From Arthrobacter stackebrandtii (GTDB lineage Bacteria; Actinomycetota; Actinomycetes; Actinomycetales; Micrococcaceae), in contig NZ_JAGIOI010000001.1 of NCBI RefSeq assembly GCF_017876675.1, forward strand, positions 2,790,001-2,854,000: a DNA stretch of 64,000 nucleotides, written 5' to 3'. The stretch's first letter is position 1; the number at the start of each line of letters is the position of its first letter. A program made the translations under genes and the position numbers. The notes below the pieces were generated by a model. It did not search any database. It saw only the letters and a program-made list of their open reading frames with translations, and was not told where the DNA came from. This document shows positions 23,200 through 55,011 of the stretch, one piece after another.

Positions 23200-23295
23200 C
23201 GGCGCCGTCACCTGGCAGATGCGATCGCGTTGCGGAAAAACTGGCAATTGCTGCGACAGCGTCGGGGAAAACGGGGTCAGAGGTGATGCCGCGTC
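23200..23295 (-). repeat. 32-bp repeat array 1 (three units, sense with the TetR gene)
   Basis: On the minus strand, units start at 23295, 23263 and 23231. Unit 1 is type B (GACGCGGCATCA), unit 2 type A (GACGCTGTCGCAGCAAT), unit 3 degraded (AACGCGATCGCA). Units 1 and 2 each carry a T run after the core. The array begins two bases after the TAG of the TetR gene. It shows that types A and B share one register and are variants of one repeat. Confidence 0.85.
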
Positions 23296-23296
23296 G

Positions 23297-23914
23297 CTAA
23301 GGGGTGGGGGATTCCGCAGCGATGATGGACTCCAGCTCGACGCACCAGGCGTCGAGCACCCAAGTGCGGCGGCCGGCGTCGTCTGTGAGGATGTTGGCAA
23401 GTCCGAGCCCGCGGCCAAGGTCAAGGGTTGCGGCGACGATCGCACGCAGCCGCGGATTGTCCCGGTTGATTTTCAGCAGCGTCGAGGCGAGCCGGAACGC
23501 CTCCCTGGCCACCACCTGCTCCAGCGGGATGACGTGCTCGCGCACCACGGGGTCAACGGCGGCGGCGTTCCACACCTGCAGCGCCGCCCGAAACAGCGGG
23601 CCGGTATACAGGCCGACGATGGATTCCAGCACTTCGCGCACCGGGACGGGGCCGTCGCCGTGGGCGGCGAGAGTGGCCTTGGCTTCATTCACGCGGGCCA
23701 CGGTCATGTGCTCTATGGCGGCCGTGAAGAGGTCGTCGCGGGTGGGGAAGTGGTGCTGTGCGGCGCCGCGCGACACTCCTGCGTGGGTGGCCACGGTGGT
23801 GACAGTGGTGTTGTTCCAGCCGGTCTCCGACAGCAGCGTGACGGCACTTTCCAACAGCCGTTCCCGCGTGGCACGGCTGCGGTCCTGCTGGGGTTCGATG
23901 ACTGTTCTGCTCAC
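23297..23914 (-). CDS. TetR-family transcriptional regulator of the AtuA-type operon
   Basis: A 205-residue repressor. The N-terminal helix-turn-helix reads TVTTVATHAGVSRGAAQHHFPTR from about residue 32, followed by an all-helical ligand-binding domain. GTG 23914 was selected because TACCGT lies six bases upstream, implying a leaderless mRNA; upstream in-frame codons run through the operator. It is divergent from the TIGR03084/AtuA operon, and the 18-bp palindrome between them covers the -35 regions of both promoters, so it most likely represses both itself and the operon until an acyl-CoA or terpenoid-like ligand binds (inference). Confidence 0.88.
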   Translation of the reverse strand: MSRTVIEPQQDRSRATRERLLESAVTLLSETGWNNTTVTTVATHAGVSRGAAQHHFPTRDDLFTAAIEHMTVARVNEAKATLAAHGDGPVPVREVLESIVGLYTGPLFRAALQVWNAAAVDPVVREHVIPLEQVVAREAFRLASTLLKINRDNPRLRAIVAATLDLGRGLGLANILTDDAGRRTWVLDAWCVELESIIAAESPTP

Positions 23915-23920
23915 ATCAGG

Positions 23921-23926
23921 ACGGTA
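23921..23926 (-). promoter_or_regulatory. -10 element for a leaderless TetR transcript
   Basis: TACCGT on the minus strand ends six bases before GTG 23914. Seventeen bases further upstream the -35 position (GCTTGC) falls inside the palindrome at 23942-23959. Confidence 0.45.
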
Positions 23927-23941
23927 GCACGAAATTGAAAC

Positions 23942-23959
23942 AAGCAAGCATGCTTGCTT
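23942..23959. promoter_or_regulatory. Perfect 18-bp palindrome, probable TetR operator
   Basis: AAGCAAGCATGCTTGCTT is a perfect palindrome midway between the divergent TetR and TIGR03084 genes. It includes the -35 hexamers for both directions, the position expected for a repressor that blocks both promoters. Confidence 0.85.
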
Positions 23960-23982
23960 TTTTATGATGCAGCTCACATACT
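23954..23982 (+). promoter_or_regulatory. Promoter of the AtuA-type operon
   Basis: TTGCTT (23954-23959), a 17-base spacer and CATACT (23977-23982) point right. The -35 is the right half of the palindrome, so bound repressor would exclude polymerase. Confidence 0.6.
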
Positions 23983-24022
23983 GGATCTAAATGTACTGCC
24001 CGGTAACAAAGGAGTTCAGCAA

Positions 24023-24871
24023 ATGGTGGATGTGGCGGACGTTCTTGCCGACTACGAGGGCGAAGCACAGGCGCTTGACGGGCTCGTTGCTGGCCTTCCT
24101 GCGGGGGACTGGGCGTTGGCAACGCCGGCACCCGGCTGGAGCATTGCCCACCAGATCGGCCACCTTGCCTGGACGGACGCTGTCGTCATCGATGCCGCGG
24201 CCGCAGCCAACGGTCAGCCCGCTGCGTTCACCTCACTCGTTGCCGGCATCGCGTCCGGGGCCGCCACGATCGACGGTGCCGCCGCGGAGTTGGCCGCCCT
24301 GCCACCGGCCGGGCTGCTGGAACGGTGGCGGGATGGACGACGCCGGATGGCGGCTTCCCTGCGCGAGGTCGCCCCGGGCGCCAAGCTCCCCTGGTTCGGC
24401 CCGCCCATGAGCCCGGCCTCGATGGCGACGGCGCGCATCATGGAGACCTGGGCGCACGGGCAGGACGTTGCCGATGCCCTGGGTGTTGTCCGTGAGCCAA
24501 CGGAGCGGCTGCGGCACATTGCCCACCTGGCCGTGCGCACCCGAAACTTTGCCTTCAAAACCAACCAGTTGGATGTTCCGGTGGAAGAATTCCGGGTTGA
24601 ACTGGAAGGCCCGGGCGGTGAAATCTGGACCTGGGGCCCCGAAGACGCTGCCGAAAAGGTCAGCGGCACTGCCGAGGAATTCTGCCTGCTTGCCACCCGC
24701 CGCCGGCACCGCGACGACCTCTCGCTCACGGCCGTGGGCGCAAATGCGGAGACGTGGCTGGACATTGTGCAGGCCTTCGCCGGACCACCCGGTGAAGGGC
24801 GCAAACCCGTCAATCCCCTCAATCCCGTCAACGAAACTGCCGCCCACGTCGCCGAAGGAACCTCCGCATGA
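24023..24871 (+). CDS. TIGR03084 family metal-binding protein (DinB/maleylpyruvate-isomerase-like)
   Basis: A 282-residue protein of the DinB-like fold. Metal-ligand positions appear as His in GWSIAHQIGHLAWTD (about 50) and in METWAHGQDVADALG (about 145), the usual spacing for mycothiol-dependent isomerase-like proteins. TIGR03084 members have no proven reaction but frequently precede AtuA-type genes in actinobacteria. AAAGGAG lies eight bases before ATG 24023. The stop overlaps the AtuA start (ATGA). First gene of the operon under the adjacent TetR repressor. Confidence 0.85.
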   Translation: MVDVADVLADYEGEAQALDGLVAGLPAGDWALATPAPGWSIAHQIGHLAWTDAVVIDAAAAANGQPAAFTSLVAGIASGAATIDGAAAELAALPPAGLLERWRDGRRRMAASLREVAPGAKLPWFGPPMSPASMATARIMETWAHGQDVADALGVVREPTERLRHIAHLAVRTRNFAFKTNQLDVPVEEFRVELEGPGGEIWTWGPEDAAEKVSGTAEEFCLLATRRRHRDDLSLTAVGANAETWLDIVQAFAGPPGEGRKPVNPLNPVNETAAHVAEGTSA

Positions 24872-26574
24872 GCGTGTTGCGCGTCGCCAACGCCTCCGGG
24901 TTCTACGGCGACCGGGCCGGTGCGTTCAGGGAGATGCTGGAGGGAGGCCCGGTGGATGTCATCACCGGCGACTACCTGGCCGAACTGACCATGCTGATCC
25001 TGGCCCGCGACCGCGCCAAGGACCCTGAAACCGGCTACGCCAAGACGTTCCTGCTGGAAATGCGCGACAGCCTGGCACTGGCCATGGACAAGGGCGTGAA
25101 GATCGTGGTCAACGCCGGCGGACTCAACCCCGCCGGGTTGGCCGCCAAGCTGCAGGAGCTGGCGGCCACCCTCGACGTGGAGGCAAAAATTGCCCACGTC
25201 CACGGCGACGACCTCATCGACCGCGCAGAAGAGCTGAACCTGACAACCCGCAACGGAAAACCACTCTCCGCCAATGCTTACCTGGGCGGCTGGGGCATCG
25301 CCGCAGCCCTGAAGGCAGGCTCAGACATCGTCGTCACCGGCCGCGTCACGGACGCCTCCCTCGTGGTGGGCGCCGCCGCACACCACTTCGGCTGGGCCGA
25401 AACCGACTACGACCAGATCGCCGGCGCCATGGCTGCCGGGCACGTCATCGAATGCGGCACGCAGGCCACGGGCGGAAACTACGCCTTCTTCGACTCGATT
25501 AAGGACATGCGCCGCCCCGGCTTCCCCATCGCGGAAATCGAAAAAGACGGTTCCAGCGTGATCACCAAGCACCCCGGCACCGGCGGCGCCGTCACGAAAG
25601 GCACCGTCACGGCCCAGCTGGTCTATGAAATCACCGGCGCCCGCTATGCCGGACCCGACGCGATCCTGCGCCTGGACAGCATCGACATTGCAGACGACGG
25701 CCCCGACCGCGTCCGCCTCTCCGGCGTGCGCGGGGAAGCCCCGCCGGACACGCTGAAGGTCTCCATCAACGCCCTCGGCGGATTCCGCAACGAGGTCACC
25801 TTTGTCCTCACCGGCCTGGACATCGACAAAAAGGCAGCGCTCATCCAAAGCCAAATCGGGCGGGACGTCCCGGAGGGAACCACCTGGACCCTGGCCCGCA
25901 CCGACCGCGAGGACGCCGCGACGGAGGAGGAGGCCAGCGCCATGCTCCACTGCGTGGCCCGCGGCCAGGACCCCAAGATCGTGGGACGCGCCTTCTCCAA
26001 CGCCGCCGTCCAGATCGGCCTGGCCAGCTACCCCGGATTCCACCTGACCGCCCCGCCCGGAGACGCAGCACCCTACGGCGTCTACACGCCCGGCTTGGTC
26101 CGCGCCGCCGAGGTCCCGCACCTCGTCACGTTGCCCGACGGCACCACGGCGGGAGTCCCGCTGAACAGCGGAACTGTGCCATCCGCCGTCGCCCTTGCCC
26201 CTGTGGAGGAACCAACCCTCCCGCCGCTGCCCAGCCCAAGCACGACGGCGCGTGCCCCGCTTGGGCGCGTTGCGGCGGCCCGCAGCGGTGACAAGGGCGG
26301 CGACGCGAATGTGGGCGTATGGGTGGAGCGCGAAGACGCCTGGCCGTGGCTCGTGAACACCCTCACGGTGGACAAGCTTAGGGAGCTGCTGCCGGAAACC
26401 CGCACGCTGGAAATTGAACGGCATGTGCTGCCCAAGCTGCACGCCGTGAACTTTGTCATCCGAGGCCTGCTCGGTGAAGGCGTGGCGTCCAACGCCCGCT
26501 TTGACGCGCAGGCAAAGGCCCTGGGCGAATGGCTCCGTGCCCGCCACCTCGACATTCCGGAGGAATTCCTGTGA
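24868..26574 (+). CDS. atuA: Acyclic terpene utilization AtuA-family protein (DUF1446)
   Basis: A 568-residue protein. The DUF1446 domain covers about 1-440, beginning with RVANASGFYGDRAGAFREML and including VNAGGLNPAGL, TGRVTDASLVVG and ATGGNYAFF. A separate C-terminal domain (about 460-565) begins after a Pro-rich linker with GRVAAARSGDKGGDANVGV, the AtuA-like ferredoxin-fold segment. In Pseudomonas AtuA is required for citronellol/geraniol growth but its reaction is unsettled. It is flanked by TIGR03084 and the carboxylase genes with 4-base overlaps on both sides, so it belongs to the same transcript and pathway. Confidence 0.9.
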   Translation: MSVLRVANASGFYGDRAGAFREMLEGGPVDVITGDYLAELTMLILARDRAKDPETGYAKTFLLEMRDSLALAMDKGVKIVVNAGGLNPAGLAAKLQELAATLDVEAKIAHVHGDDLIDRAEELNLTTRNGKPLSANAYLGGWGIAAALKAGSDIVVTGRVTDASLVVGAAAHHFGWAETDYDQIAGAMAAGHVIECGTQATGGNYAFFDSIKDMRRPGFPIAEIEKDGSSVITKHPGTGGAVTKGTVTAQLVYEITGARYAGPDAILRLDSIDIADDGPDRVRLSGVRGEAPPDTLKVSINALGGFRNEVTFVLTGLDIDKKAALIQSQIGRDVPEGTTWTLARTDREDAATEEEASAMLHCVARGQDPKIVGRAFSNAAVQIGLASYPGFHLTAPPGDAAPYGVYTPGLVRAAEVPHLVTLPDGTTAGVPLNSGTVPSAVALAPVEEPTLPPLPSPSTTARAPLGRVAAARSGDKGGDANVGVWVEREDAWPWLVNTLTVDKLRELLPETRTLEIERHVLPKLHAVNFVIRGLLGEGVASNARFDAQAKALGEWLRARHLDIPEEFL

Positions 26575-28166: not shown

Positions 28167-28173
28167 GCCCCCC

Positions 28174-30192: not shown

Positions 30193-30232
30193 GAAGAAAT
30201 CAATGACTGGAACACTCAACGAGGAGAAGCAG

Positions 30233-31390
30233 ATGAGCATTGTCGAAACAGAGGAACAGCAGGCGCTGCGGTCGGCGGTGCGGGACATTGTGGGCCGCTA
30301 CGGCCCCGAATATGCCACCAAGCATTCCCGCGCCGGGGAGTCCATGACGGAGCTGTGGACGGAGCTCGGCGAGGCCGGATTCCTGGGCGTCTCGGTGCCG
30401 GAGGAATATGGCGGCGGCGGGCAGGGCATCTATGAGCTGGCGGCCGTGCTGGAGGAATCCTCGGCGCTGGGCGCGTCCATGATCATGATGGTGGTCTCGC
30501 CCGCCATCTGCGGCACGATCATCGCCAAGTACGGCACGGAAGAGCAGAAGCGGGCCTGGCTGCCAGGCTTTGCCGACGGCTCGATCGTCATGGCCTTCGG
30601 CATCACCGAGCCCGACGCCGGCTCGAACTCGCACAACATCTCCACCGTGGCCCGCCGCGACGGCGACGACTGGGTGCTCAACGGCCGCAAGGTCTTCGTC
30701 ACCGGCGTCAACAACGCCGACTACGTGCTGATCGTGGCCCGCACCGTGGATGAGCGCAGCGGCCGGTTGCGCCCGGCCATGTTCGTGCTGCCCCGCGAAA
30801 CCCACGGCTTTGAATACCGGGAAGTGGAAATGGACATCATCGAATCGGAGAAGCAGTACCTGCTGTTCCTTGACGACGTCCGCCTCCCCTCTTCAGCCCT
30901 GGTGGGCGGTGCCGATGCACCCCTGGAAGCCCTGTTTGCCGGGCTGAATCCGGAACGCATCATGGCCTCCGCCATCGCCGTGGGCACGGGCCGCTACGCC
31001 ATCGACAAGGCCGTGGACTATGTGAAGGAGCGGGAGGTCTGGGGCCAGCCCATCGGCGCCCACCAGGGCATCGCGCACCCGCTGGCCAAGGCGCACATCG
31101 AGGTGGAGCTGAGCCGGCTCATGATGCTCCGTGCCGCGGCCCTGTACGACGCCGGTGAGGACAAGGCCGCGGGAGAGGCCGCCAACATGGCCAAATACTC
31201 CGGAGCCGAGGCCAGCATCAACGCCCTCGACGTGGCCATCCATTCCATGGGCGGCAATGGCCTGAGCAAGGAGTACGGCCTGGCACAGATGCTGGGTCTG
31301 GCCCGCATTGGCCGGGTGGCCCCCGTCAGCCGCGAGATGGTGCTGAACTTTGTGGCCCAGCACTCGCTCGGCCTGCCGAAGAGCTACTAG
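30233..31390 (+). CDS. Acyl-CoA dehydrogenase (AtuD-like)
   Basis: A 385-residue flavoprotein that forms the alpha-beta double bond of an acyl-CoA and hands electrons to ETF. Family motifs are AFGITEPDAGSNSHN (FAD/acyl contact, about 123-137), GRKVFVTGVNNAD, NPERIMASAIAVGTGRYAIDKAVDYVKER and SMGGNGLSKEYGL near the C-terminus. ATG 30233 has GAGGAG six bases upstream; an in-frame ATG at 30203 is less likely. In the Atu scheme it would oxidise the branched substrate before carboxylation. Its stop overlaps the hydratase start by one base. Confidence 0.9.
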   Translation: MSIVETEEQQALRSAVRDIVGRYGPEYATKHSRAGESMTELWTELGEAGFLGVSVPEEYGGGGQGIYELAAVLEESSALGASMIMMVVSPAICGTIIAKYGTEEQKRAWLPGFADGSIVMAFGITEPDAGSNSHNISTVARRDGDDWVLNGRKVFVTGVNNADYVLIVARTVDERSGRLRPAMFVLPRETHGFEYREVEMDIIESEKQYLLFLDDVRLPSSALVGGADAPLEALFAGLNPERIMASAIAVGTGRYAIDKAVDYVKEREVWGQPIGAHQGIAHPLAKAHIEVELSRLMMLRAAALYDAGEDKAAGEAANMAKYSGAEASINALDVAIHSMGGNGLSKEYGLAQMLGLARIGRVAPVSREMVLNFVAQHSLGLPKSY

Positions 31391-32199
31391 TGGCGGCGCC
31401 TGAAACCGCACCTGCTGCCGGGTCTTCCCCCACCGAACTGGTCCACTACGCCGTGGAGTCGGGAATCGCCACCATCACCCTGGACTCGCCGGGCAACCGC
31501 AACGCCCTGTCCCGGCAGCTTGTCACCGAGCTCGTGGCCGGGCTGGAACGGGCGGCGCTCGCAGCCGGTACCGGGCAGGTCCGCGGCATCCTGCTCACCC
31601 ACACCGGCAGCGTGTTTTGCGCCGGGGCGGACCTCAAGGAAGCCGGCGCCCACGGCGTCGAGGCCGGCGCCCGGGACCTGGTGCAGATCCTCCGCACCAT
31701 CCTGACCGTGCCCGTTCCCGTCATTGCCAGGGTCGACGGCGTTGCCCGGGCGGGCGGGCTGGGCATCCTGGGTGCCTGCGACATTGTCGTGGCCCACTCC
31801 TCTGCCACGTTCGCCTTCTCAGAGGTGCGGATCGGGCTGGGACCGGCGATCATTTCGCTGACCACGATGCCTCGGATGAGTAGCCGCGCCGTGTCCCGGT
31901 ACTACCTGACCGGCGAGGCGTTCGGCGCCGCGGAGGCGCAGGCCAACGGGCTCATCACGGCAGCCGCCGATGACGTGGATTCCACCCTGGCCCCCATTCT
32001 CGAAGGCGTCCGCCAAGGCTCCCCGCAGGGCCTGGCCGAGAGCAAGAAGATGGCAGCCGCCACCATGCTGGCGGCCCTCAACGAGGGTGCCGAAACGATG
32101 GTGGCACTCTCCTCGCGGCTCTTCACCACCGACGAGGCCAAGGAGGGCATGGCGGCGTTCCTGGAGCGCCGAAAGCCGTCCTGGCGCCTCCCTTCTTAG
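31390..32199 (+). CDS. Enoyl-CoA hydratase of the methylglutaconyl/isohexenylglutaconyl type (AtuE-like)
   Basis: A 269-residue crotonase. The oxyanion-hole segment CAGADLKEAG is near 75. The first catalytic Glu of classical hydratases is replaced (RAGGLGILGACDI), whereas FSEVRIGLGPAIIS keeps the second; this pattern matches LiuC/AtuE hydratases acting on 3-methylglutaconyl-type CoA esters, which follow the carboxylation step. GTG 31390 shares one base with the preceding stop, consistent with translational coupling. The final G of the TAG stop is also base 1 of a three-unit 32-bp repeat array. Confidence 0.88.
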   Translation: MAAPETAPAAGSSPTELVHYAVESGIATITLDSPGNRNALSRQLVTELVAGLERAALAAGTGQVRGILLTHTGSVFCAGADLKEAGAHGVEAGARDLVQILRTILTVPVPVIARVDGVARAGGLGILGACDIVVAHSSATFAFSEVRIGLGPAIISLTTMPRMSSRAVSRYYLTGEAFGAAEAQANGLITAAADDVDSTLAPILEGVRQGSPQGLAESKKMAAATMLAALNEGAETMVALSSRLFTTDEAKEGMAAFLERRKPSWRLPS

Positions 32200-32294
32200 A
32201 CCCTGTCGCAGCAATGGCCGCTTAATACCCGACGTCCTCGCAGCAATGGCCAATTAATACCCAACGCTCTCGCAGTTTTTCCCTGACAACACCG
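32199..32294 (+). repeat. 32-bp repeat array 2 (three units, sense with the AtuE-like gene)
   Basis: Units start at 32199, 32231 and 32263. Units 1 and 2 keep the core TCGCAGCAATGGC followed by TTAATACCC in place of the usual T run. Unit 3 (AACGCTCTCGCAG) has lost part of the core and goes directly into TTTTTCCCTGAC. The array overlaps the last base of the gene's stop codon and fills the gap before the ligase gene. Confidence 0.88.
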
Positions 32295-32329
32295 CCTGCA
32301 ATGCCGCCGGCGCACCAGAAAGGCAAAAC

Positions 32330-33943: not shown

Positions 33944-34850
33944 GGACTTGGGAAGCACTGATTTGGGCGGCACGGGAAGCACGACGCCGGAGGGCGGCTT
34001 GGGTGCTTCCGGCACCCCTGCGCCGGGGAACCTTGGCGGAAAAACGATTCTCATGTCCGGAGGCTCGCGCGGCATCGGCCTGGCCATCGCCGAGCGGGCC
34101 GCGCGCGACGGCGCCAACGTGGTGCTGATCGCGAAGACGGACAACCCCGACCCCCGGCTGGAGGGCACGATCCACACGGCGGCCGCAGCCATTGAGGCCG
34201 CCGGCGGGAAGGTCCTTGCCGTGGTGGGCGACGTCCGCGACGACGACACCATTGCCTCCGCCGTGGCCCAGGCCGTCTCCACGTTTGGCGGGATCGACAT
34301 CGTGGTGAACAACGCCTCCGTCATTTCCCTTGACGGCACGCTGAAGGTTTCACAGAAACGCTACGACCTCATGCAGGACGTCAACGTGCGCGGCACCTTC
34401 ATGCTCTCCAAGGCGGCGCTGCCACACCTGCTCGAGGCGGAAAATCCGCACATCCTCACGCTCAGCCCGCCGCTGAACTTCGACCCGAAGTGGATGGGCG
34501 CCAACCCGGCCTACACCTTGGCGAAGTACGGCATGACGCTGACGGCGCTGGGCTTTGCCGCCGAGTTTGCCAAGCAGGGCGTTGCCTCCAACGCGCTGTG
34601 GCCGCGCACGACGATTGCAACAGCTGCCGTGGCGAACATCCTGGGCGGGGACGAGATGATCCGGCGCTCACGCACGCCGGCCATCATGGCAGATGCCGCG
34701 CACGCGATCCTCACCTCGCCGAGCAGGGAACTGACGGGGCAGGCGATCATTGACGAGGAGCTGCTGCGGACCCGCGGCATGGAGGACTTCTCCGGGTATG
34801 CCGTGGACCCCACGGCGGAATTGATGATCGACCTCTACGTGGACAAGTAG
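33927..34850 (+). CDS. Short-chain dehydrogenase/reductase (HSDL2/AtuG-like)
   Basis: A 307-residue NAD(P)-dependent oxidoreductase. After an unusual 36-residue Gly/Ser/Thr-rich N-terminal extension comes the Rossmann motif SGGSRGIG (about 44-51), then NNAS near 130 and the active-site YTLAK near 195, with an upstream Leu-Ser-Pro-Pro where the catalytic Ser falls. The AtuG position in Pseudomonas atu clusters is filled by a comparable SDR. GGAGGGG lies just before ATG 33927 inside the ligase gene, so the two are translationally coupled. The gene converges on a TetR regulator across two opposing repeat arrays. Confidence 0.87.
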   Translation: MTGTSKDLGSTDLGGTGSTTPEGGLGASGTPAPGNLGGKTILMSGGSRGIGLAIAERAARDGANVVLIAKTDNPDPRLEGTIHTAAAAIEAAGGKVLAVVGDVRDDDTIASAVAQAVSTFGGIDIVVNNASVISLDGTLKVSQKRYDLMQDVNVRGTFMLSKAALPHLLEAENPHILTLSPPLNFDPKWMGANPAYTLAKYGMTLTALGFAAEFAKQGVASNALWPRTTIATAAVANILGGDEMIRRSRTPAIMADAAHAILTSPSRELTGQAIIDEELLRTRGMEDFSGYAVDPTAELMIDLYVDK

Positions 34851-34867: not shown

Positions 34868-34963
34868 GACGCTGTCGCAGCAATGGCGGGTTTTTCTGCC
34901 ACGCCAGCGCAGCAATGGCTGGTTTTCCGGCGACGCTGTCGCGCTCCGTGACGGGAGCTGCGA
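34868..34963 (+). repeat. 32-bp repeat array 3f (three units, sense with the SDR gene)
   Basis: Units start at 34868, 34900 and 34932. Unit 1 is the full consensus GACGCTGTCGCAGCAATGGC followed by a T5 run; unit 2 has CGCAGCAATGGC and a T4 run; unit 3 keeps only GACGCTGTCGC and merges with the opposing array. Confidence 0.88.
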
Positions 34964-34970
34964 CAGCGTT
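34932..34970. terminator. Stem-loop formed where two opposing repeat arrays meet
   Basis: ACGCTGTCGC plus GCTCC on the left pairs with GGAGC and GCGACAGCGT on the right, with one bulged T and a six-base loop. It is symmetrical between convergent genes and is a plausible bidirectional terminator. Confidence 0.6.
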
Positions 34971-35034
34971 CGCTGGCATCGAGCCATTGCTGCGACAGCG
35001 TCCAGGGGAAAGCTGCCATTGCTGCGACAGCGTC
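34939..35034 (-). repeat. 32-bp repeat array 3r (three units, sense with the TetR gene at 35053)
   Basis: On the minus strand units start at 35034, 35002 and 34970. The first two keep the full core GACGCTGTCGCAGCAATGGC; the third keeps AACGCTGTCGCAGC and pairs with the plus-strand array. Confidence 0.88.
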
Positions 35035-35052: not shown

Positions 35053-35733
35053 TCAGATGGCGGGGACGGCCTTTTCCACGATGACTGCCAGGGTGCTGGA
35101 CAGCAGGGCATGCACCTGCGGGCGGGTCAGCGTCTTGCGCAGCAGCCATTCGCGCGCACCGCTGCGGGCCAGCTGCGCGTAGACGCGGAACATGGCCTTG
35201 ATGTCCTCGCGCCCGTTGCGCCGCCCGGCCAGCCCGCAGGCCTCAATGAGCAGCTCAACCGACTCGTTCTCGGCCGCGATCAGGATCTTCTCCAGGTCGG
35301 GGTCGCGCCCCATGCTGCCGCCGCCAAAACTCAGCCACGAACCGCCGGACTTCTCCAGCGAGTCCAGAAACCAGGTCACCGCCTGGTCGATGCGCTCCTC
35401 CAGCGTCCCGTCCGGCAGCGCCGCAACCGCAACAGCGGACACGGTGGAACTGACCTTGACCACTTCCAGGTACAGCCCCCGCTTGTTGCCGAAATAGTGG
35501 TTGATGAGCCCGCGCGCCACGCCCGCCTCGGCGGCAATGTCGGTGGCCGACACCTCCTCGTACGCGCGTTCGTTGAACAGCTTCTGCGCGCACACAAAAA
35601 TCTGCTGTCGCCGCTCATCAGGGGCCAGCCGCTGGCGCCTCGGCTCCGCGCCGTCCGCGCCATGTCCGACGCCGGCCGCCTCCTCCGGTGGGGCGGCGGC
35701 GCCCGGGTGCGGGGCCGGGCCGGCGGACGTCAC
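35053..35733 (-). CDS. TetR-family transcriptional regulator of the beta-oxidation operon
   Basis: A 226-residue regulator. A Pro/Ala-rich N-terminus (about 35 residues) precedes the helix-turn-helix VSATDIAAEAGVARGLINHYF (about 62-82) and a helical effector domain. GTG 35733 overlaps the stop of the crotonase gene upstream (GTGA) with AGAAAGG eight bases before, so the two form an operon. A 21-bp perfect inverted repeat lies upstream of that operon, over the -35 of the divergent acyl-CoA dehydrogenase promoter, and is the likely operator. Followed by a sense-oriented repeat array. Confidence 0.88.
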   Translation of the reverse strand: MTSAGPAPHPGAAAPPEEAAGVGHGADGAEPRRQRLAPDERRQQIFVCAQKLFNERAYEEVSATDIAAEAGVARGLINHYFGNKRGLYLEVVKVSSTVSAVAVAALPDGTLEERIDQAVTWFLDSLEKSGGSWLSFGGGSMGRDPDLEKILIAAENESVELLIEACGLAGRRNGREDIKAMFRVYAQLARSGAREWLLRKTLTRPQVHALLSSTLAVIVEKAVPAI

Positions 35734-43847: not shown

Positions 43848-43865
43848 CCGCCAGGGAAGGAACAA

Positions 43866-44954
43866 ATGGTGGGTGGTCCGTTGCAGGGATTGAAGGTGGT
43901 GGAGCTTTCCGCCATGGGCCCGGCCCCGCATGCCGCCATGATGCTGGCGGACTTGGGGGCGGAGGTGGTGCGGGTGGTTGGGCCCGCGCCGCCGGTTGGC
44001 GGGTACGACGTCGGCACCCACCTGCAGCGCGGCCGCACCACTGTCCGGGCGAACCTGAAAGACCCCGCGCACCTTGAGGGGGTGCGGGGGCTGGTTGCCG
44101 CGGCCGACGTTTTCCTGGAGGGTTTCCGCCCCGGCACCACCGAGCGGCTTGGTTTGGGGCCGGAGGAGTGCCTGGCCTTGAATCCGCGCCTTGTGTATGG
44201 GCGGATGACGGGGTGGGGGCAGGACGGGCCGTTGGCGCAGCGGGCCGGGCACGACATCAACTACATGGCGCTCACAGGCGCCCTGCATGCCATCGGCCCG
44301 GCCGAGCGGCCCGTGCCGCCCCTGAACCTCGTGGGCGACTTTGGCGGCGGATCGATGTTTGTCCTCACCGGCATTCTCGCCGCCCTGTGGGAACGGGAAC
44401 GCTCCGGGCTGGGGCAGGTGGTGGATGCGGCCATGGTGGACGGGGTCAGCGTGCTCTCCCAGATCATCCTCGAACTGCGCTCGGTCAACCTGTGGAACGA
44501 CACCCGCGCCGCCAACCTGCTGGACGGCGCCGCCCCCTTCTACCGGACGTATGAAACATCCGACGGCAGACACGTCGCCGTGGGTGCCATCGAGCCCCAG
44601 TTCTATGCGCTGCTCATCGACGGGCTGGGGCTTTCCGCCGGGGAGTTGCCGGACCGGGACGACCCCCGCCAGTGGCCGGCCCTGGAGGCCTTGCTGGCCG
44701 GGGCCTTTGCCGCCAGGACCCGGGATGAATGGGCGGATGTGTTCGACGGCGTAGATGCGTGCGTCACCCCCGTGCTGACGTACGCCGAGGCCGCGAAAAA
44801 CACGCACATTGCCGCCCGTGGGGCGCTCTCCGGAAGCGGCAGGCATGTCGTGGCCGCCCCGGCCCCGCGCTTTTCCCGCACCGCATCCGTGGCACGGGAT
44901 CCGGCGGGCGAGACAGATTTTGAAACCATATTGAGCTCTTGGAGGGCATCTTGA
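43866..44954 (+). CDS. mcr: Alpha-methylacyl-CoA racemase-like CoA transferase family III enzyme
   Basis: A 362-residue CaiB/BaiF-fold protein. The segment [21 protein letters not shown] matches the His-Asp active-site stretch of alpha-methylacyl-CoA racemase (AMACR/MCR) more than formyl-CoA transferase, and GQDGPLAQR precedes it as in that group. The enzyme interconverts 2R and 2S methyl-branched acyl-CoAs so that the stereospecific dehydrogenase can act. Its presence in a beta-oxidation operon points to methyl-branched or isoprenoid-like substrates. GGAAGGAAC lies before ATG 43866; the stop overlaps the following TTG start (TTGA). Confidence 0.86.
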
Positions 44955-46006
44955 TCACCGTAACGGCAGAGGAACAGTTCCAGGCGTGGAAGGCCAAGGT
45001 CATGCCGCCCGTGGAGCAGGTCCGGCCCTGCGTCTGGTCAATCCCCGTGCCGTTTGTGGGCAACCCCATGCGCTACACGCTCTGCTATGTGCTCATCGGG
45101 GAGGATGTTGGCGGGCGCCGCGAAGTGGCCCTGGTGGATCCCGGCTGGGACTCGGACGAGGGCTGGGAGGTGCTCACGGAGGGGCTCGCAACCGCCGGCC
45201 TCGCGCCGTCGGACATCACCGGCATTGTGGTGACCCACTTCCACCCCGACCACCTGGGCATGGCGGCGCGGCTGCGCGAGGCGTCCGGCGCCTGGGTGGC
45301 GCTGGGGGAGCACGAGCCGCTGCCGGAACACTGGCGCGGGGACCCGTCGCAGTTTGTTGCCGAGGACCGGTCCCAGTTTGCCGACTGGGGCGTGCCGGAC
45401 GAGTACCTGGACGAGGTCAGCTTCCAAAAGCAGACGTGGGCGCAGATGACAGGCATTGCGGCACCGCAGCGGCGCCTGGCCGATGGCGAATTGCTGCCAA
45501 TTGCCGGGCTGCAGGTCCGGGTCTTGTCCACGCCCGGGCACACTCCGGGGAGCATCTGCCTGGTGGACGAGGCGAACCAGCTTTTCCTGACGGGCGACCA
45601 CGTGCTGCCCAAGATCACCCCGCACGTTTCCCTGGAGGCCGCCAATCACGTGAACCCGTTGGGCGACTACTTCAACTCATTGGAGATCCTGGGCGCCGGT
45701 GCCGACATGGAGGTGCTGCCTGCGCACGAATACCGTTTCCGGGGGTTGCTGGAACGTGCTGCCGAACTGAAGGAACACACGCTGGAACGGTCGCGGGAGG
45801 TCATGGCGGTGCTGGATGCGGGGGAGGCGGGAAGCGTGTGGGATGTGTCGAAGGAGCTGACGTGGTCGCGGGGCTTCGACTCCCTGCGCGGCTTCACGCT
45901 GCGGCTGGCGCTCGCCGAAACTGCCAGCCACCTGGTGTACCTGGCGGCACAGGGCAGGGACATGAACATTGAGGTTTCCAGGGGCACCCCAACCCCGGCC
46001 CGCTGA
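44951..46006 (+). CDS. MBL-fold metallo-hydrolase
   Basis: A 351-residue metallo-beta-lactamase-fold protein. [11 protein letters not shown] near 96 is the HxHxDH dimetal motif; [16 protein letters not shown] and [11 protein letters not shown] supply later ligands, and HEYRF the C-terminal His. Relatives act as glyoxalase II-like or thioesterase-like hydrolases; position at the end of a beta-oxidation operon suggests thioester hydrolysis, which is inference. TTG 44951 overlaps the racemase stop and has GGAGGG four bases upstream; an in-frame TTG at 44939 is the alternative. The operon ends in a repeat array. Confidence 0.84.
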
Positions 46007-46015
46007 CCACCCCTC

Positions 46016-46111
46016 GACGCTGTCGCAGCAATGGCGGCTTTTTCACGGATCCTGTCGCAGCAATGGCAGGTTTTTCCCGGACCCTCTCGCAATCGCCGGC
46101 AGCACCCAGGG
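46016..46111 (+). repeat. 32-bp repeat array 4f (three units, sense with the MBL gene)
   Basis: Units start at 46016, 46048 and 46080. Units 1 and 2 hold CTGTCGCAGCAATGGC and T5 runs; unit 3 (GACCCTCTCGCAA) decays. Period exactly 32 between all starts. Confidence 0.88.
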
Positions 46112-46203
46112 AGCAGCTGACGGTCGCTGCGACAGCGATTCTAAATTTTCAACCAGTGCTGCGAGAGCGTTGCAAGCAAACCAGCCAGTGCTGCGACAGG
46201 GTT
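46108..46203 (-). repeat. 32-bp repeat array 4r (three units, sense with the MarR gene)
   Basis: On the minus strand units start at 46203, 46171 and 46139 with cores TGTCGCAGCACTGGC, TCTCGCAGCACTGG and TGTCGCAGCGACC. The core has AC for AA (CAGCACTGG), shared by the first two units of this array only, indicating local homogenisation. It ends against the plus-strand array. Confidence 0.85.
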
Positions 46204-46222
46204 GCTTGGTTGCTTGGATGCC

Positions 46223-46756: not shown

Positions 46757-46795
46757 GGCGCATCCTTTCATCGGCAACACCAACAGAAACAACAA

Positions 46796-46817
46796 TTTAC
46801 TTGGGATACCTAGTAAA
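46796..46817. promoter_or_regulatory. Imperfect palindrome, probable MarR operator
   Basis: TTTACT-n-GG and CC-n-AGTAAA arms are symmetrical over 22 bases. The half site TACCTAGTA recurs once more 21 bases to the right (starting at 46808 and 46829 by the TACC), giving two spaced sites before etfB. Confidence 0.6.
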
Positions 46818-46879
46818 TGCTAGTGGTACCTAGTATTCTTCCAGTGAGACCTGAAACACAAAACTTGAAGGGGCCATCA

Positions 46880-47647: not shown

Positions 47648-47661
47648 GAAGGGCACTCGCG

Positions 47662-48636: not shown

Positions 48637-48842
48637 CAGCCGCGCCGCGGGCGCGGCGGCACGGCCGTGGGCCCCAAACCCCGGCCCCGCGCCGCCGCGC
48701 ACCGGAAGTGCCAGCCTCCGTGGCCCCGCATGACGGAGAATGGAGGGAATCGCCCCGGCACCTGTTACAAATAAAGTTGCACAACGGCAGCGCCACCAGC
48801 TGGACGCTTCCGCAGGAAGTTATGTGAAAGAGGTTTTCCAGA
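48637..48842. other. Gap between etfA and the cytochrome-b gene
   Basis: A GC-rich stem (CCGCGCC-GCG-GGCGCGG, near 48642-48658) follows the etfA stop without a T run. Further on the sequence becomes A/T-richer (about 48770-48785) and could contain a weak promoter for the next gene; no clear hexamers. Confidence 0.35.
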
Positions 48843-49796: not shown

Positions 49797-49802
49797 AAGT
49801 AC

Positions 49803-49833
49803 GACGCCGGCACCCCCCCCGGGTGCCGACGTC
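49803..49833. terminator. Hairpin after the cytochrome-b gene
   Basis: CGGCACCC and GGGTGCCG form a strong stem around a C-rich loop, with outer GACG/CGTC pairs. It lacks a T run, so termination is uncertain. Confidence 0.45.
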
Positions 49834-49978
49834 GCCGCAGGCGCCGCCTTCCCAGGGAGGGGGCGCATGCAGGGCCCACAATCCCCGGGCCCGTCACCTT
49901 GGGCGGCTGCCGCCGCCCGGGGGTGGCCACCCGCCACCCCGGCACCGAGGCCGCAACGATGCGGCAAAAGGAGGCACC

Positions 49979-51118: not shown

Positions 51119-51133
51119 GTGGAGGATGGGTTT

Positions 51134-52207
51134 ATGGACAACAACGACGTTCTCATGCAGCGCACCGGGACGCTGGGACACCTGGTGCTCAACCGCCCCG
51201 AGGCCATCAACGCGCTCAACCACGGCATGGTCCAGGCTGTTGCCGCCGCCCTGGACGAGTGGGAGCAGGATCGCGGCGTTGCAACTGTCCTCATTTCGGG
51301 CGCCGGGGAACGGGGGCTTTGTGCCGGCGGAGACATCGTCTCCATCTACCACGACGCCCGCAACGGCGGCCATGAAAGCGAACAATTCTGGCGCGACGAG
51401 TACCACCTCAACGCCCGCATCGCCCGCTACCCCAAGCCCGTCGTGACCCTCATGGACGGGGTGGTGCTGGGCGGCGGCGTGGGCATTTCCGCACACGCCT
51501 CACACCGGATCGTCACCGAGCGCTCCCGGATCGGCATGCCGGAAACAGGCATCGGCTTCGTCCCCGACGTAGGCGGGCTGTGGCTGCTCTCCCGCGCACC
51601 GGGTGAGCTGGGCACGCATGCCGCGCTCACCGGCGGCATGGTCAGCGGCGCCGACGCCGTTGCCATGGGACTGGCCAGCCACTACATGGATTCCGCGGTC
51701 CTGCCCACGCTGGTGGCCGAGCTGGCCGAACGCAATGCAGGCGCCGCCGTCGCCCGCTACGGGCAGGTGCCGCCGGAGTCCGCGCTGGCCGCGCAGCGCT
51801 GGTGGATTGACGAATGCTACGCCCCGGACGACGCCGGAACAATCCTCGGGCGGTTGGCCCGCGTGGGCGATCCAGCGGCTGACGCGGCTGCGGCGGCCAT
51901 TGCGGCCAAGTCGCCCACGGCGGTCACCGTGACGCTTGCCGCGCTGCGCCGGGCCCGTGCGCTGGGGTCGCTGGAAGCTGTGCTGAACCAGGATTTGCGG
52001 GTGTCGCTGCGGGCCCTGCGCTGGCCGGACTTTGCCGAGGGCATCAGGGCCCAGCTCGTGGACAAGGACCGCAACCCGGCGTGGCGCCCCGCGTCGCTGG
52101 CCGAGGTGCCGGCGGACGTGGTCCGGGAGGCCTTTGCGGACCTGGGCGGGCTGGAGCTGGGACTGGCGCAGCCCGCCGTCGAAAACGTTGGATCAGTGCT
52201 GTTGTGA
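51134..52207 (+). CDS. 3-hydroxyisobutyryl-CoA hydrolase (HIBCH-like)
   Basis: A 357-residue crotonase longer than classical hydratases, as HIBCH enzymes are. GLCAGGDIVSIYHDARNG near 60, LGGGVGISAHASHRI and SRIGMPETGIGFVPDVGGLWLLSR match the hydrolase branch, including the Glu and Asp of PETGIGFVPDVG. It releases free 3-hydroxyisobutyrate from its CoA ester for MmsB. ATG 51134 has GGAGG eight bases upstream; a GTG at 51119, one base after the previous stop, is an alternative. Confidence 0.87.
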   Translation: MDNNDVLMQRTGTLGHLVLNRPEAINALNHGMVQAVAAALDEWEQDRGVATVLISGAGERGLCAGGDIVSIYHDARNGGHESEQFWRDEYHLNARIARYPKPVVTLMDGVVLGGGVGISAHASHRIVTERSRIGMPETGIGFVPDVGGLWLLSRAPGELGTHAALTGGMVSGADAVAMGLASHYMDSAVLPTLVAELAERNAGAAVARYGQVPPESALAAQRWWIDECYAPDDAGTILGRLARVGDPAADAAAAAIAAKSPTAVTVTLAALRRARALGSLEAVLNQDLRVSLRALRWPDFAEGIRAQLVDKDRNPAWRPASLAEVPADVVREAFADLGGLELGLAQPAVENVGSVLL

Positions 52208-52228
52208 CGATGAGAAAAGGAAACTGCC

Positions 52229-53209
52229 ATGAGCTACGAATCATCTGAGCGTCCCGCAACCGGGGCCGCCGCCGACACCTCCAACCCCGCCGGCACCAAG
52301 GTGGCCTTCATCGGCCTGGGCCACATGGGCGGGCCCATGGCCGCCAACCTGGTGGCCGCAGGGTACTCGGTCACCGGGTTCGACGTGGTGCCCGCGGCGT
52401 TGGAGGCCGCGGCCGGGGCCGGTGTGGCCGTGGCGCCCTCCAGTGCTGCCGCTGCCGACGGCGCCGACGTCATCATCACCATGCTGCCCGCCGGCAAACA
52501 TGTCTTTGCCGCGTTTGAGGGGGAGGGGCCCGGGGGCGGGCTGCTGGCTGCGGCCAAGCCGGGCGCCCTGTTCCTGGAATGCTCCACGATCTCCGTCGAG
52601 GACGCCCGCACCGCCCACGAGATGGTCGTGGCCAGCGGCCACCGTGGCCTGGACGCGCCGGTCTCCGGCGGCGTCATGGGTGCCGAGGCCGGCACCCTGA
52701 CGTTCATGGTGGGCGGCGCCGAAGAGGACTTCGCCGCGGCCGGGCCGCTCTTTGAGGTCATGGGCCGGCGCATTGTGCTGTGCGGCGGGCCCGGTGCCGG
52801 GCAGGCCGCCAAGGTGTGCAACAACATGATCCTTGGCGTGTCCATGATCGCCGTCAGCGAGGCCTTTGTGCTCGGCGAAAAGCTGGGGCTGAGCAACCAG
52901 GCACTGTACGACGTCGCCGCCAACGCCTCCGGGCAGTGCTGGTCGCTGACCACCAACTGCCCCGTCCCCGGGCCCGTCCCCGCGAGCCCCGCCAACCGCG
53001 ACTACCAGCCCGGATTCGCCGGGGCCCTCATGGCCAAGGACCTCGGCCTTGCCGTCGAGGCGCTCAACGCCACCGGCGTCGACGCCGTGCTGGGCCGCTC
53101 CGCGGAGGAGATCTACCGCGAATTCGCCCTGCACGGCGGAGCCGGGACGGACTTCTCCGGCATCATCAACACCATTCGCGCCGCCAGCCAGGGCGCCGGA
53201 TCCGACTAG
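52229..53209 (+). CDS. mmsB: 3-hydroxyisobutyrate dehydrogenase
   Basis: A 326-residue beta-hydroxyacid dehydrogenase. After a 22-residue variable N-terminus comes the NAD-binding VAFIGLGHMGGPMAANL (about 25-41). The substrate motif APVSGG lies near 150 and the catalytic Lys in GAGQAAKVCNNMILG near 195. It oxidises 3-hydroxyisobutyrate to methylmalonate semialdehyde, the next step of valine breakdown. The usual partner mmsA (semialdehyde dehydrogenase) is not in this window. Confidence 0.92.
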   Translation: MSYESSERPATGAAADTSNPAGTKVAFIGLGHMGGPMAANLVAAGYSVTGFDVVPAALEAAAGAGVAVAPSSAAAADGADVIITMLPAGKHVFAAFEGEGPGGGLLAAAKPGALFLECSTISVEDARTAHEMVVASGHRGLDAPVSGGVMGAEAGTLTFMVGGAEEDFAAAGPLFEVMGRRIVLCGGPGAGQAAKVCNNMILGVSMIAVSEAFVLGEKLGLSNQALYDVAANASGQCWSLTTNCPVPGPVPASPANRDYQPGFAGALMAKDLGLAVEALNATGVDAVLGRSAEEIYREFALHGGAGTDFSGIINTIRAASQGAGSD

Positions 53210-53272
53210 CCGGGCCGCCTGCCCCGGCCCGCCGCACGGCGGCCCCTTCCCGAACCGAACGGAACCATCTTC

Positions 53273-54049
53273 ATGACGCAGTACTCCTTCATCCTGACCG
53301 AACAGCGCGGCCGGGTCGGCCTGATCACGCTCAACCGGCCCGAGGCCCTCAACGCCCTCAGTGACGCCATGGGGCATGAGATCCTCGCCGCCGCACAGGT
53401 GTACGACGACGATGCCGGCATCGGCGCCATCGTCATCACCGGCTCCTCCCGCGCCTTTGCAGCCGGCGCCGACATTAAGGAAATGGCGCACATGTCATCC
53501 GTTGAGATGTACCAGGCCAACTGGTTCTCCGTCTGGGATGAGCTGGCCCGGGTCCGCACGCCCATTGTCGCCGCCGTGGCGGGGCACGCCCTGGGCGGCG
53601 GCTGCGAACTCGCCATGATCGCCGACTTCATCATCGCTGCCGACAACGCCAAGTTTGGCCAGCCGGAAATCAAGCTCGGCGTCATCCCCGGCATGGGCGG
53701 CACACAGCGGCTGACCCGCGCCGTCGGCAAGGCCAAGGCCATGGAAATGATGCTGACGGGCCGCGTCATGGGCGCCGTTGAGGCCGAACAGTCCGGGCTG
53801 GTGGCGCGGGTGGTCCCGCTGGATTCGCTGCTGGAGGACGCCATGGCCACGGCCGATGCCATTGCCTCGATGTCCAAGACCGTGGCGATGATTGCCAAGG
53901 AGGCCGTCAACGCGGCCTTTGAGACCACCCTGGCGGAAGGCGTCCGGCACGAGCGCCGCGGCATCTACTCCTGCTTCGCCACGGAAGACCAAAAGGAAGG
54001 CATGGCCGCGTTCATGGAAAAGCGGGCCGCCAACTTCAAGCACCGCTAA
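53273..54049 (+). CDS. Enoyl-CoA hydratase (short-chain type)
   Basis: A 258-residue crotonase with both catalytic glutamates: [12 protein letters not shown] and [31 protein letters not shown] provides the other oxyanion-hole strand. It is closest in form to ECHS1/EchA8-type crotonases and in this operon probably hydrates methacrylyl-CoA between the dehydrogenase and the HIBYL-CoA hydrolase. Last gene of the valine segment, followed by a type-B repeat array. Confidence 0.91.
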
Positions 54050-54072
54050 CCCCCACACCCCTCCCACCTTCC

Positions 54073-54168
54073 GACGCGGCATCAGATAAGTCGCTGTTTT
54101 CATGAACGCGGCATCAGATAAGTGGCATTTTTGGCCGACGCCGCACCAGTGGCGGGACGGCGGGGCCT
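54073..54168 (+). repeat. 32-bp repeat array 5, type B (three units, sense with the hydratase gene)
   Basis: Units start at 54073, 54105 and 54137 with cores GACGCGGCATCAGATAAG, AACGCGGCATCAGATAAG and GACGCCGCACCAG; units 1 and 2 carry T4-T5 runs. Same 32-bp period and same GACGC start as type A. Confidence 0.86.
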
Positions 54169-54213
54169 CCGAGTTGGTGTTTCCGGCAAACGCATGTACT
54201 GTTGAGGACGCAA

Positions 54214-54287
54214 CGCGGGGTGGAGCAGCTCGGTAGCTCGCCGGGCTCATAACCCGGAGGTCATAGGTTCAAATCCTATCCCCGCAA
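54214..54287 (+). tRNA. Initiator tRNA-fMet (CAT), copy 2
   Basis: Same cloverleaf and initiator features as copy 1 (C1/A72 mismatch, three G-C pairs in the anticodon stem). It differs by one D-loop base and by a compensated pair in the T stem (C-G to T-A), so both copies appear functional. CCA is not encoded. Confidence 0.97.
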
Positions 54288-54297
54288 CTTGATGAGG

Positions 54298-54327
54298 AAA
54301 TCCCTCGGCCATTGGCCGGGGGCTTTC
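54298..54327 (+). terminator. Terminator after tRNA-fMet copy 2
   Basis: CCCTCGGCC and GGCCGGGGGC pair around a three-base loop and run into CTTTCC. It starts 11 bases after the tRNA, as in copy 1. Confidence 0.75.
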
Positions 54328-54359
54328 CGACTTAAAGCCCAATATTTGGAGTCTGTGCG

Positions 54360-54917
54360 ATGACCGGAACCGAACCGCCGCCGCGGCCGCGCCTCGAAGC
54401 GTCGATGGATGCGGATGAATTCTCCCGCTGGTACTGGTTGAAAACGGAACTTGCAGATTTTGCCAGGGCCAACGGGCTGTCTGCCACCGGAGGCAAGGAA
54501 CATCTGGCTGGGCGGATCATGGCCCTCCTGGACGGCAGACCCCAGCCGGCCGCTCCGCCTGCGAAGCGGGCCTCAAGGCAACTCGCCAACCCGCTGTCGG
54601 CGGACACCCTGATTCCGGCAGGCCAGCGTTGCAGCCAGATTCTGCGCGCGTGGTTTGAAGGGCAGCTCGGCAGTGGATTCCACTTCGATGCCCACATGCG
54701 GGACTTCATCGCCTCCGCAGACGGAACCTCCACCCTCGCGGATGCGTTGGCGCACTGGAGTTCCACCCGAAACGCCCCTGCGCCGGAGGTCGGAGCGCAA
54801 TTCGAGCTCAATCGATTCACCAGGGACTGGTTTGCAGCTAATGCAGACGGCACCCGCGAGGACATGATTGCGGCATGGAAACGGCATCGTTCCCTGCCCA
54901 AAGACTTGCGTCCCTGA
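54360..54917 (+). CDS. SAP/DUF6434-like protein
   Basis: A 185-residue soluble protein. Residues about 15-60 look like a SAP-type helix-extended loop-helix (YWLKTELADFARANGLSATGGKEHLAGRIMALL), a fold that often binds nucleic acid. The C-terminal part (about 85-185) ends in RFTRDWFAANADGTREDMIAAWKRHRSLP, which resembles DUF6434. Function is not known. It is a single gene after tRNA-fMet; its stop codon lies under the decayed end of the opposite-strand repeat array. Confidence 0.65.
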   Translation: MTGTEPPPRPRLEASMDADEFSRWYWLKTELADFARANGLSATGGKEHLAGRIMALLDGRPQPAAPPAKRASRQLANPLSADTLIPAGQRCSQILRAWFEGQLGSGFHFDAHMRDFIASADGTSTLADALAHWSSTRNAPAPEVGAQFELNRFTRDWFAANADGTREDMIAAWKRHRSLPKDLRP

Positions 54918-55011
54918 CCAGCCCGCCGGCACGGGTGATGCGGCGTCAGGGAAAACACCCATTTATCTGATGCGGCGTCAGGGAAAAACGGGCGTTATGT
55001 GATGCCGCGTC
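54916..55011 (-). repeat. 32-bp repeat array 6, type B (three units, sense with modC)
   Basis: On the minus strand units start at 55011, 54979 and 54947 with cores GACGCGGCATCACATAA, GACGCCGCATCAGATAA and GACGCCGCATCACCCG; units 1 and 2 have T runs and CCCT before the next unit. Just upstream TCTGGAGGGG is tandemly doubled next to the modC stop. Confidence 0.86.

What the first reader, a model, noticed from the sequence alone, without database searches (positions are those of the whole stretch)
23200..55011. Orientation-locked triple repeats with an exact 32-bp period after the last genes of transcription units
Eight arrays (23200-23295, 32199-32294, 34868-34963, 34939-35034, 46016-46111, 46108-46203, 54073-54168, 54916-55011) each contain three units starting exactly 32 bp apart, with the unit farthest from the gene usually decayed. 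The unit is GACGCTGTCGCAGCAATGGC (type A) or GACGCSGCATCAGATAAG (type B), followed at fixed distance by a T run and CCC. All 24 units are in the sense strand of the gene directly upstream. 32 bp is close to three helical turns, which would place every unit on the same DNA face. No spacers, no cas genes and no coding potential. I do not recognise the family.
Basis: seen in the sequence. Interest (0 to 1): 0.9.

Follow-up and report, generated by a model that had tools for sequence, protein, structure and literature searches.

The report
Mirrored 32-bp repeats ending genes
In two related groups of soil bacteria, many genes are followed by a short DNA element built of repeats set almost always 32 letters apart, often mirrored around a hairpin and spelled differently in different species; it most likely stops transcription, by a design we did not find described.

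Summary
The arrays are real; all eight lie where stated. The unit is a 13-nt box (RACGC-N5-CAS) plus a 19-nt spacer with a T-run about ten nt after the box. In 25 genomes, 1869 box pairs lie at lag 32 and 222 at the six neighbouring lags (about 114 of those chance). Sense orientation at convergent ends is therefore partly automatic: single arrays between codirectional genes are 16 sense to 7 antisense. The family occurs in 2 of 32 genera sampled, and the N5 differs between species: 3' of mnmA, 11 of 23 species carry an element in about seven spellings. In this genome elements favour convergent gaps (16 of 70) over divergent ones (3 of 107). In codirectional gaps the T-runs of both halves lie on the gene's sense strand (20 elements against 1). 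Best explanation: transcription-unit-end terminators, often bidirectional, perhaps with an unidentified factor reading the box. No experiment supports this, and some strand tests were not significant. REP-like repeats share the location but fail membership tests.

The parts
23200..23295 (-). Single array: type B unit (box 23283-23295), type A unit (box 23251-23263), last box 23219-23231
   Evidence: In phase, 1 nt after the stop codon of the minus-strand gene 23297-23914; counted as mixed BA
32199..32294 (+). Single type A array: boxes at 32199, 32231 and 32263; no T-run in the two complete spacers, but TTTTT directly after the last box
   Evidence: starts at the stop codon of 31390-32199 (enoyl-CoA hydratase family). 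RNA fold weaker than shuffles, z +1.5
34868..34944 (+). Forward half of mirrored type A element: boxes at 34868, 34900 and 34932-34944
   Evidence: 17 nt after the stop of 34053-34850
34958..35034 (-). Inverted half of the same element: boxes 35022-35034, 34990-35002 and 34958-34970
   Evidence: 18 nt after the stop of the minus-strand gene 35053-35733
34932..34970 (.). Central hairpin: last forward box, loop, last inverted box
   Evidence: The whole of 34868-35034 folds as one long hairpin, -130.3 kcal/mol against a shuffled mean of -71.5, z -13.3
46016..46092 (+). Forward half of mirrored type A element: boxes at 46016, 46048 and 46080-46092
   Evidence: 9 nt after the stop of 44951-46006
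46127..46203 (-). Inverted half: boxes 46191-46203, 46159-46171 and 46127-46139
   Evidence: fold of 46016-46203 z -4.8. The orthologous gap holds a tandem element in 7 of the 19 genomes that have the gene, this one included
54073..54168 (+). Single type B array: boxes at 54073, 54105 and 54137-54149, upstream of tRNA-Met 54214-54288
   Evidence: 23 nt after the stop of 53273-54049
54916..55011 (-). Single type B array: boxes 54999-55011, 54967-54979 and 54935-54947
   Evidence: 18 nt after the stop of the minus-strand gene 55030-56154

Best explanation
A family of transcription-unit-end elements that stop RNA polymerase, often in both directions. Each unit is a 13-nt box followed after about 10 nt by a T-run. 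When polymerase reaches the end of the T-run, the box lies about 15 nt behind the RNA 3' end, which is about where RNA leaves the polymerase (established knowledge, recalled). The inferred steps are that the box is then bound, as RNA or as DNA, by an unidentified sequence-specific factor, that polymerase stops over the weak U-tract, and that two to four tandem units give repeated chances. Where the last box faces an inverted box, the RNA also forms a hairpin. In codirectional gaps the spacers after the hairpin tend to carry T on the sense strand too, as in an intrinsic terminator. At convergent ends the mirrored half serves the opposite gene. Shown here: phase, location, mirror symmetry, strand bias of the T-runs, species-specific spelling. 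Inferred: termination, the factor, and why the distance is 32.
For: Location: in this genome 16 of 70 convergent gaps, 13 of 247 codirectional and 3 of 107 divergent gaps of at least 60 bp hold an element. In codirectional gaps the element starts a median of about 14 nt after the stop codon and ends a median of about 78 nt before the next start (86 elements). T-runs: in single arrays the slot after the box is T in 42, neither in 7 and A in 0 of 49 array halves. In mirrored elements between codirectional genes the forward half is 16 T to 1 A and the inverted half 6 T to 10 A in own orientation, p 0.0008. Over all loci after removing duplicates, T on the sense strand in both halves: 20 elements; on the antisense strand in both: 1; p 2e-5; mixed: 4 (25 of 49 such elements could be classed in both halves). 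This comparison is not biased by how the loci were chosen. Hairpin: 35 of 52 forward-to-inverted junctions have a gap of 3-6 nt modulo 32; of the 24 with a gap of 2-12 nt, 21 have at most 2 mismatches between the two boxes. Retention with changed spelling: mnmA 3' end 11 of 23 species, MBL/MarR gap 7 of 19; in two species without the array at the latter gap there is a plain long hairpin (G015, G016). Same species, two loci, read by eye: G005, G006, G011 and G020 have sense-strand T in the inverted half at codirectional mnmA and A-runs there at the convergent locus. Phase: 1869 box pairs at lag 32 and 222 at lags 29-31 and 33-35, of which about 114 by control, although adjacent boxes differ at 188 sites in 85 comparisons and adjacent spacers at 157 sites in 30.
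Against: No transcript data. Two species (G000, G012) break the cross-locus T-run rule. The comparison of inverted halves in convergent and codirectional gaps is not significant, p 0.19. Directly after the central hairpin, T-runs are no commoner on the sense than on the opposite strand in codirectional gaps: 4 and 3 of 11. Convergent elements classed in both halves are 4 TT, 3 TA and 3 AT, not mainly TT. Single codirectional arrays are antisense in 7 of 23. Six of 52 elements in two g10 genomes lie in divergent gaps. A strict hairpin-plus-T scan finds a terminator in only 0 of 12 and 10% of 21 array ends, and in 7-9% of array-free ends, so the arrays cannot be shown to replace intrinsic terminators. 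No factor was found.
Confidence: 0.58

Rival explanations
1. REP-like or MITE-like palindromic repeats that spread and turn over, tolerated at 3' ends and without a function of their own there. Spellings are subfamilies with lineage-specific expansion.
For: Patchy counts: 48+48 type A pairs in this genome, 22+22 in G012, 0-3 in each of the other same-genus genomes searched. Spellings recur in species that are not sisters on the mnmA+mshA tree. Published REPs sit at the same places: between convergent and unidirectional genes, close to 3' ends (PMC3733652, abstract and passages).
Against: Strand rule of the T-runs. The same gaps keep an element in many species. The Y1 transposase family of RAYTs is in 2 of 23 genus genomes and not in this one. 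No other mobilising enzyme was looked for.
Confidence: 0.25
2. RNA-level 3' protection or processing: the long hairpin blocks exonucleases or is cut by a double-strand RNase, and termination happens elsewhere.
For: The mirrored element 34868-35034 folds with z -13.3.
Against: Single arrays do not fold consistently: z +1.5, -2.2, -2.9, -0.2. It does not explain the T-runs in single arrays or the fixed period.
Confidence: 0.1
3. DNA-level array of binding sites for a cooperative protein (nucleoid, gyrase-like or roadblock), with no termination at the T-run.
For: Fixed 32-bp distance, about three helical turns; different spellings share one register within an array.
Against: Only lag 32 (and 64) is seen, not 21/22 or 42/43. 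The T-run strand follows gene direction. HA-domain proteins (PF03457), one candidate reader tested, are absent from this genome and from array-rich G012, G006, G011, G404, G452, G449 and G451.
Confidence: 0.12
4. DNA uptake signals, as in Neisseriaceae, whose DUS also has dialects and inverted pairs at terminators.
For: Species-specific spelling with a constant part; inverted pairs at gene ends (PMC3630211, passages).
Against: High-scoring copies lie between genes: real array units score 25-43, single matches inside genes 13-23, apart from one at a gene start that I take for a gene-calling error. Copy numbers are in the hundreds at most, not thousands. Period 32 is unexplained.
Confidence: 0.02

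Closest known systems
CGTC-tagged and GTAG-tagged REPs and BIMEs (Di Nocera et al. 2013, PMC3733652)
   Same: Dispersed, intergenic, species-specific families; between convergent and unidirectional genes; close to upstream stop codons; opposite units can fold together; CGTC-REPs have no known dedicated transposase
   Different: A REP is itself a 20-40 bp stem-loop with an unpaired tag, and same-direction dimers are negligible among CGTC-REPs. Here the unit is no palindrome, same-direction tandem repeats at 32 bp are the rule, and T-runs follow gene direction
DNA uptake sequence dialects, Neisseriaceae (Frye et al. 2013, PMC3630211)
   Same: Species-specific spelling around a constant core; inverted pairs at terminators
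   Different: Thousands of copies, commonly also inside genes, no fixed tandem period
Intrinsic (Rho-independent) and bidirectional terminators
   Same: Hairpin and T-run just after a gene, often between convergent genes
   Different: Classical ones have one hairpin with the T-run behind it. Here T-runs follow every box, single arrays need no hairpin, and extra left arms are repeated upstream at 32 nt
Mycobacterial interspersed repetitive units (recalled; my search returned no paper on them)
   Same: Interspersed and tandem, intergenic, orientation related to genes
   Different: Longer units (recalled), no species spelling of a 13-nt box, no mirrored hairpin

Membership tests
REP (GTAG or CGTC) | Each unit is a stem-loop of 20-40 bp | tested here: not met
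   Single arrays fold at z +1.5, -2.2, -2.9 and -0.2. A 4-bp stem can be drawn in the type A box but is broken in about half of the type A units (C at position 5) and absent from type B
REP (GTAG or CGTC) | Opposite-orientation dimers predominate, same-direction ones negligible (for CGTC-REPs) | tested here: not met
   Same-direction pairs at lag 32: 1869 in 25 genomes
REP (GTAG or CGTC) | Location near 3' ends, convergent and unidirectional gaps | tested here: met
REP with RAYT | Y1 tyrosine transposase in the genome | tested here: not met
   PF01797 in 2 of 23 genus genomes, none in G000
Intrinsic terminator | Hairpin directly followed by a T-run | tested here: inconclusive
   Strict scan: 0 of 12 and 10% of 21 array ends; plain hairpin plus T at mnmA in G014; post-hairpin T 4 and 3 of 11
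Terminator, any kind | Transcripts end there | not testable with these tools
   No transcript data held
DNA uptake sequence | Many single copies, also inside genes | tested here: not met
   No high-scoring single copy inside genes in 864 kb apart from one at a gene start taken as a calling error
DNA uptake sequence | Favours uptake of DNA | not testable with these tools
   Needs transformation
Described RNA families (Rfam 15) | Match at gathering score | tested here: not met
   Only two tRNAs in the window
CRISPR | Repeats with variable spacers and cas genes | tested here: not met
   Spacers share a consensus; cas genes were not searched for

The most novel reading that the evidence does not exclude
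A factor-dependent termination system restricted to two related genera: an unknown sequence-specific factor reads 13-nt boxes at fixed 32-nt steps just as they leave RNA polymerase and releases the transcript at T-runs. Factor and boxes co-evolve, so the spelling of the terminators is replaced species by species while their places in the genome stay.
Probability: 0.25. Interest if true: 0.87.

Novelty: new variant of a known kind. Interest (0 to 1): 0.62.

Why it matters
If right, these genera end many transcripts with an element that is neither a simple hairpin nor a known factor site, and its spelling turns over while its places are kept. That gives a natural experiment on how a genome-wide cis signal is rewritten, and makes a search for the reading factor practical. 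The elements would also be ready-made bidirectional terminators for Arthrobacter genetics. Even if they are only repeats, a tandem, phase-held, mirrored class is not described in the REP papers that I looked at.

Tried and rejected
RAYT-driven REPs: Y1 family in 2 of 23 genomes, absent here. HA-domain proteins as reader: 25 of 58 genomes have a match, but array-rich genomes including this one have none. Uptake sequences: no true copies inside genes. Plasmid homologues: 28 records, E-values 2-8, no Arthrobacter among the 28 rows listed. Type A box as a small RNA hairpin: variants break it. Reversed sequence as control for lag 32: not independent, because arrays are periodic in reverse too (18; 235 over 25 genomes, of which 136 in G000), so I relied on other lags and shuffles. 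Replacement of intrinsic terminators: scan too rarely positive to decide. A wider 'other genera with other boxes' survey was not done. Paper searches (open-access library only) showed no description of this element; absence from print is claimed only for those searches.

My PWM for type B first drifted onto type A and was rebuilt. Script one search stopped with an error after printing its first part; one search failed and was rerun. Genes were called with a simple codon-usage script of my own, so a few contexts may be wrong. The second G016 paralogue (L445) was dropped from the 20 MBL loci. One search read minus-strand hits in the wrong orientation and was replaced. Spellings and presence at the three orthologous loci were assigned by eye.
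Full report
WHAT WAS CHECKED. The eight arrays are present as described. A motif-blind lag scan over 864 kb of the genome finds 44 near-repeats at lag 32, against 2 at lag 31 and 1 at lag 34; lag 33 (28) is at the level of other multiples of three. A position-weight model of type A finds 71 units against 0 in reversed sequence at threshold 11; type B finds 32 against 0 at threshold 15. All 45 lags between successive strong hits on one strand, up to 110 nt, are 32. Box-only pairs: 54 at lag 32, 23 at lag 64, 7 at all other lags from 14 to 95 together.

THE UNIT. Box RACGC-N5-CA[C/G] (13 nt), then 19 nt ending in a T-run at about positions 23-27 and C-rich bases. In this genome T is found at positions 24 and 25 in 88% and 84% of units chosen without regard to T. 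The third unit of an array is usually the box alone: 23 of 40 arrays of two or more units have a recognisable partial third box. Mixed arrays put B before A in 5 of 5 cases, in one register.

THE ELEMENT. Arrays stand alone or mirrored: forward units, a last forward box, a short loop, an inverted box, inverted units. Of 52 forward-to-inverted junctions, 35 have a gap of 3-6 nt modulo 32; of the 24 with a gap of 2-12 nt, 21 have at most two mismatches between the arms. The mirrored element at 34868-35034 folds at -130.3 kcal/mol, z -13.3; that at 46016-46203 has z -4.8. Single arrays do not fold consistently.

PERIOD. In 25 genomes of two genera there are 1869 box pairs at lag 32 and 2091 at lags 29-35, so 222 off 32; the backward control gives 114 off 32. 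About 5% of spacings are therefore really off by a little, and by-eye examples of 31 and 33 occur. Adjacent boxes differ at 188 sites in 85 comparisons and adjacent spacers at 157 sites in 30; units within an array are more alike than units of different arrays (boxes 2.2 against 3.8 differences, spacers 5.2 against 9.5). Many substitutions with few length changes suggests that the distance is selected; the neutral indel rate is recalled, not measured.

DISTRIBUTION. General pattern: 80 of 395 genomes of the family, 2 of 32 genera, up to 95 matches in one genome, with one match to the backward control that I saw in the table; 21 of 23 genomes of the window's own genus. Class sample: 3 of 394 genomes, 2 of 138 genera, own genome included. 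Two of the 29 (a Sporosarcina assembly) carry type B and type A arrays in 67% G+C DNA and look like contamination.

SPELLING. The N5 differs between species: TGTCG, CATCG, TCTCG (A) and CGCAT, GGCAT (B) here; TCTCT in G309 and mainly in G404; TCCTG in G016; CCGCT, TCGCT and CCGGT in G452 and G448; CCCAT in the listed matches of G395 and G316. Downstream of mnmA, 11 of 23 genus genomes carry an element in about seven spellings and 12 have none, mostly with a short gap. At the window's own convergent gap (46016-46203), 19 genomes have the gene: 7 carry a tandem element, each spelled differently or with a variant; 1 has a single inverted type A-like unit; 2 have a plain long hairpin; 4 show no element; 2 have no readable gap; 3 have another neighbour. 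Downstream of mshA, G000, G016 and G004 of 23 have tandem arrays. On a tree of mnmA+mshA (supports 37-100) spellings recur in non-sister species. This fits either replacement in place or repeated re-insertion; I cannot separate the two.

GENE CONTEXT. In this genome elements are in 16 of 70 convergent, 13 of 247 codirectional and 3 of 107 divergent gaps of at least 60 bp; in G016, 3 of 24, 4 of 73 and 0 of 40. In the G452 and G448 loci, 6 of 52 are divergent. Single arrays between codirectional genes: 16 sense, 7 antisense in stretches not chosen for T-runs; 20 and 7 in loci chosen by pattern.

STRAND OF THE T-RUNS. Single arrays: 42 T, 7 neither, 0 A. Mirrored elements in codirectional gaps, duplicates removed: T on the sense strand in both halves 20, antisense in both 1, mixed 4; 24 of 49 not classed in both halves (9 to 1 of these in unselected loci). 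Convergent: 4 with T on each half's own strand, 3 and 3 on one strand. Results against: convergent versus codirectional inverted halves p 0.19; post-hairpin T in codirectional gaps 4 against 3 of 11; G000 and G012 at mnmA.

INTERPRETATION. An element that knows the direction of the gene beside it, hugs stop codons, prefers convergent gaps and carries T-runs on the transcribed side is best read as a terminator. Single arrays without a hairpin suggest that the box-plus-T unit does something by itself. At the end of the T-run the box is about 15 nt behind the RNA 3' end, which fits binding as it leaves the polymerase. A DNA roadblock at the next box would stop polymerase further upstream than the T-run (footprint recalled). 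A dedicated factor is inferred and none was found (searches are negative for two guesses).

COMPARISON. REPs share location and species-specificity but are single stem-loops with negligible same-direction dimers in the CGTC class (PMC3733652: abstract, sections on CGTC families, dimers and DNA analyses, and passages; no mention of Arthrobacter or 'Actinobact' in its text). RepRanger (PMC12306157: abstract and passages) lists an Arthrobacter genome in a table of counts. DUS dialects (PMC3630211: passages) are the nearest parallel for spelling. PMC1590033: passages only.

Noticed in passing
L037:15266: Another repeat with lag 32 but a different sequence (around TTTTGTAACTC), seen once in the sampled stretches.
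   Followed up: no
L201 and L208: Scaffolds titled Sporosarcina beigongshangi REN13 carry type B and type A arrays in 67% G+C DNA, probably contamination by a relative of the window's species.
   Followed up: partly
window 54073-54288: A type B array stands between an enoyl-CoA hydratase gene and a tRNA-Met gene; a second tRNA-Met lies at 13360-13434.
   Followed up: no
window 31390-54049: Arrays punctuate a region with fatty-acid or acyl-CoA degradation genes (enoyl-CoA hydratases, FadJ/FadB-like protein) and TetR- and MarR-like regulators.
   Followed up: partly
L034:14013, L050:7047, L060:6514: Three array elements of this genome lie in divergent gaps by my gene calls, with no clear upstream sense gene.
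   Followed up: partly
L300-L342, downstream of mnmA in G005: The forward units of G005 at mnmA lack the usual T-run, while its inverted units carry TTTT on the sense strand.
   Followed up: no
G014:C2: 19 matches to the HA domain (PF03457), nine or more of them on the smaller contig, far more than in the other genomes searched.
   Followed up: no
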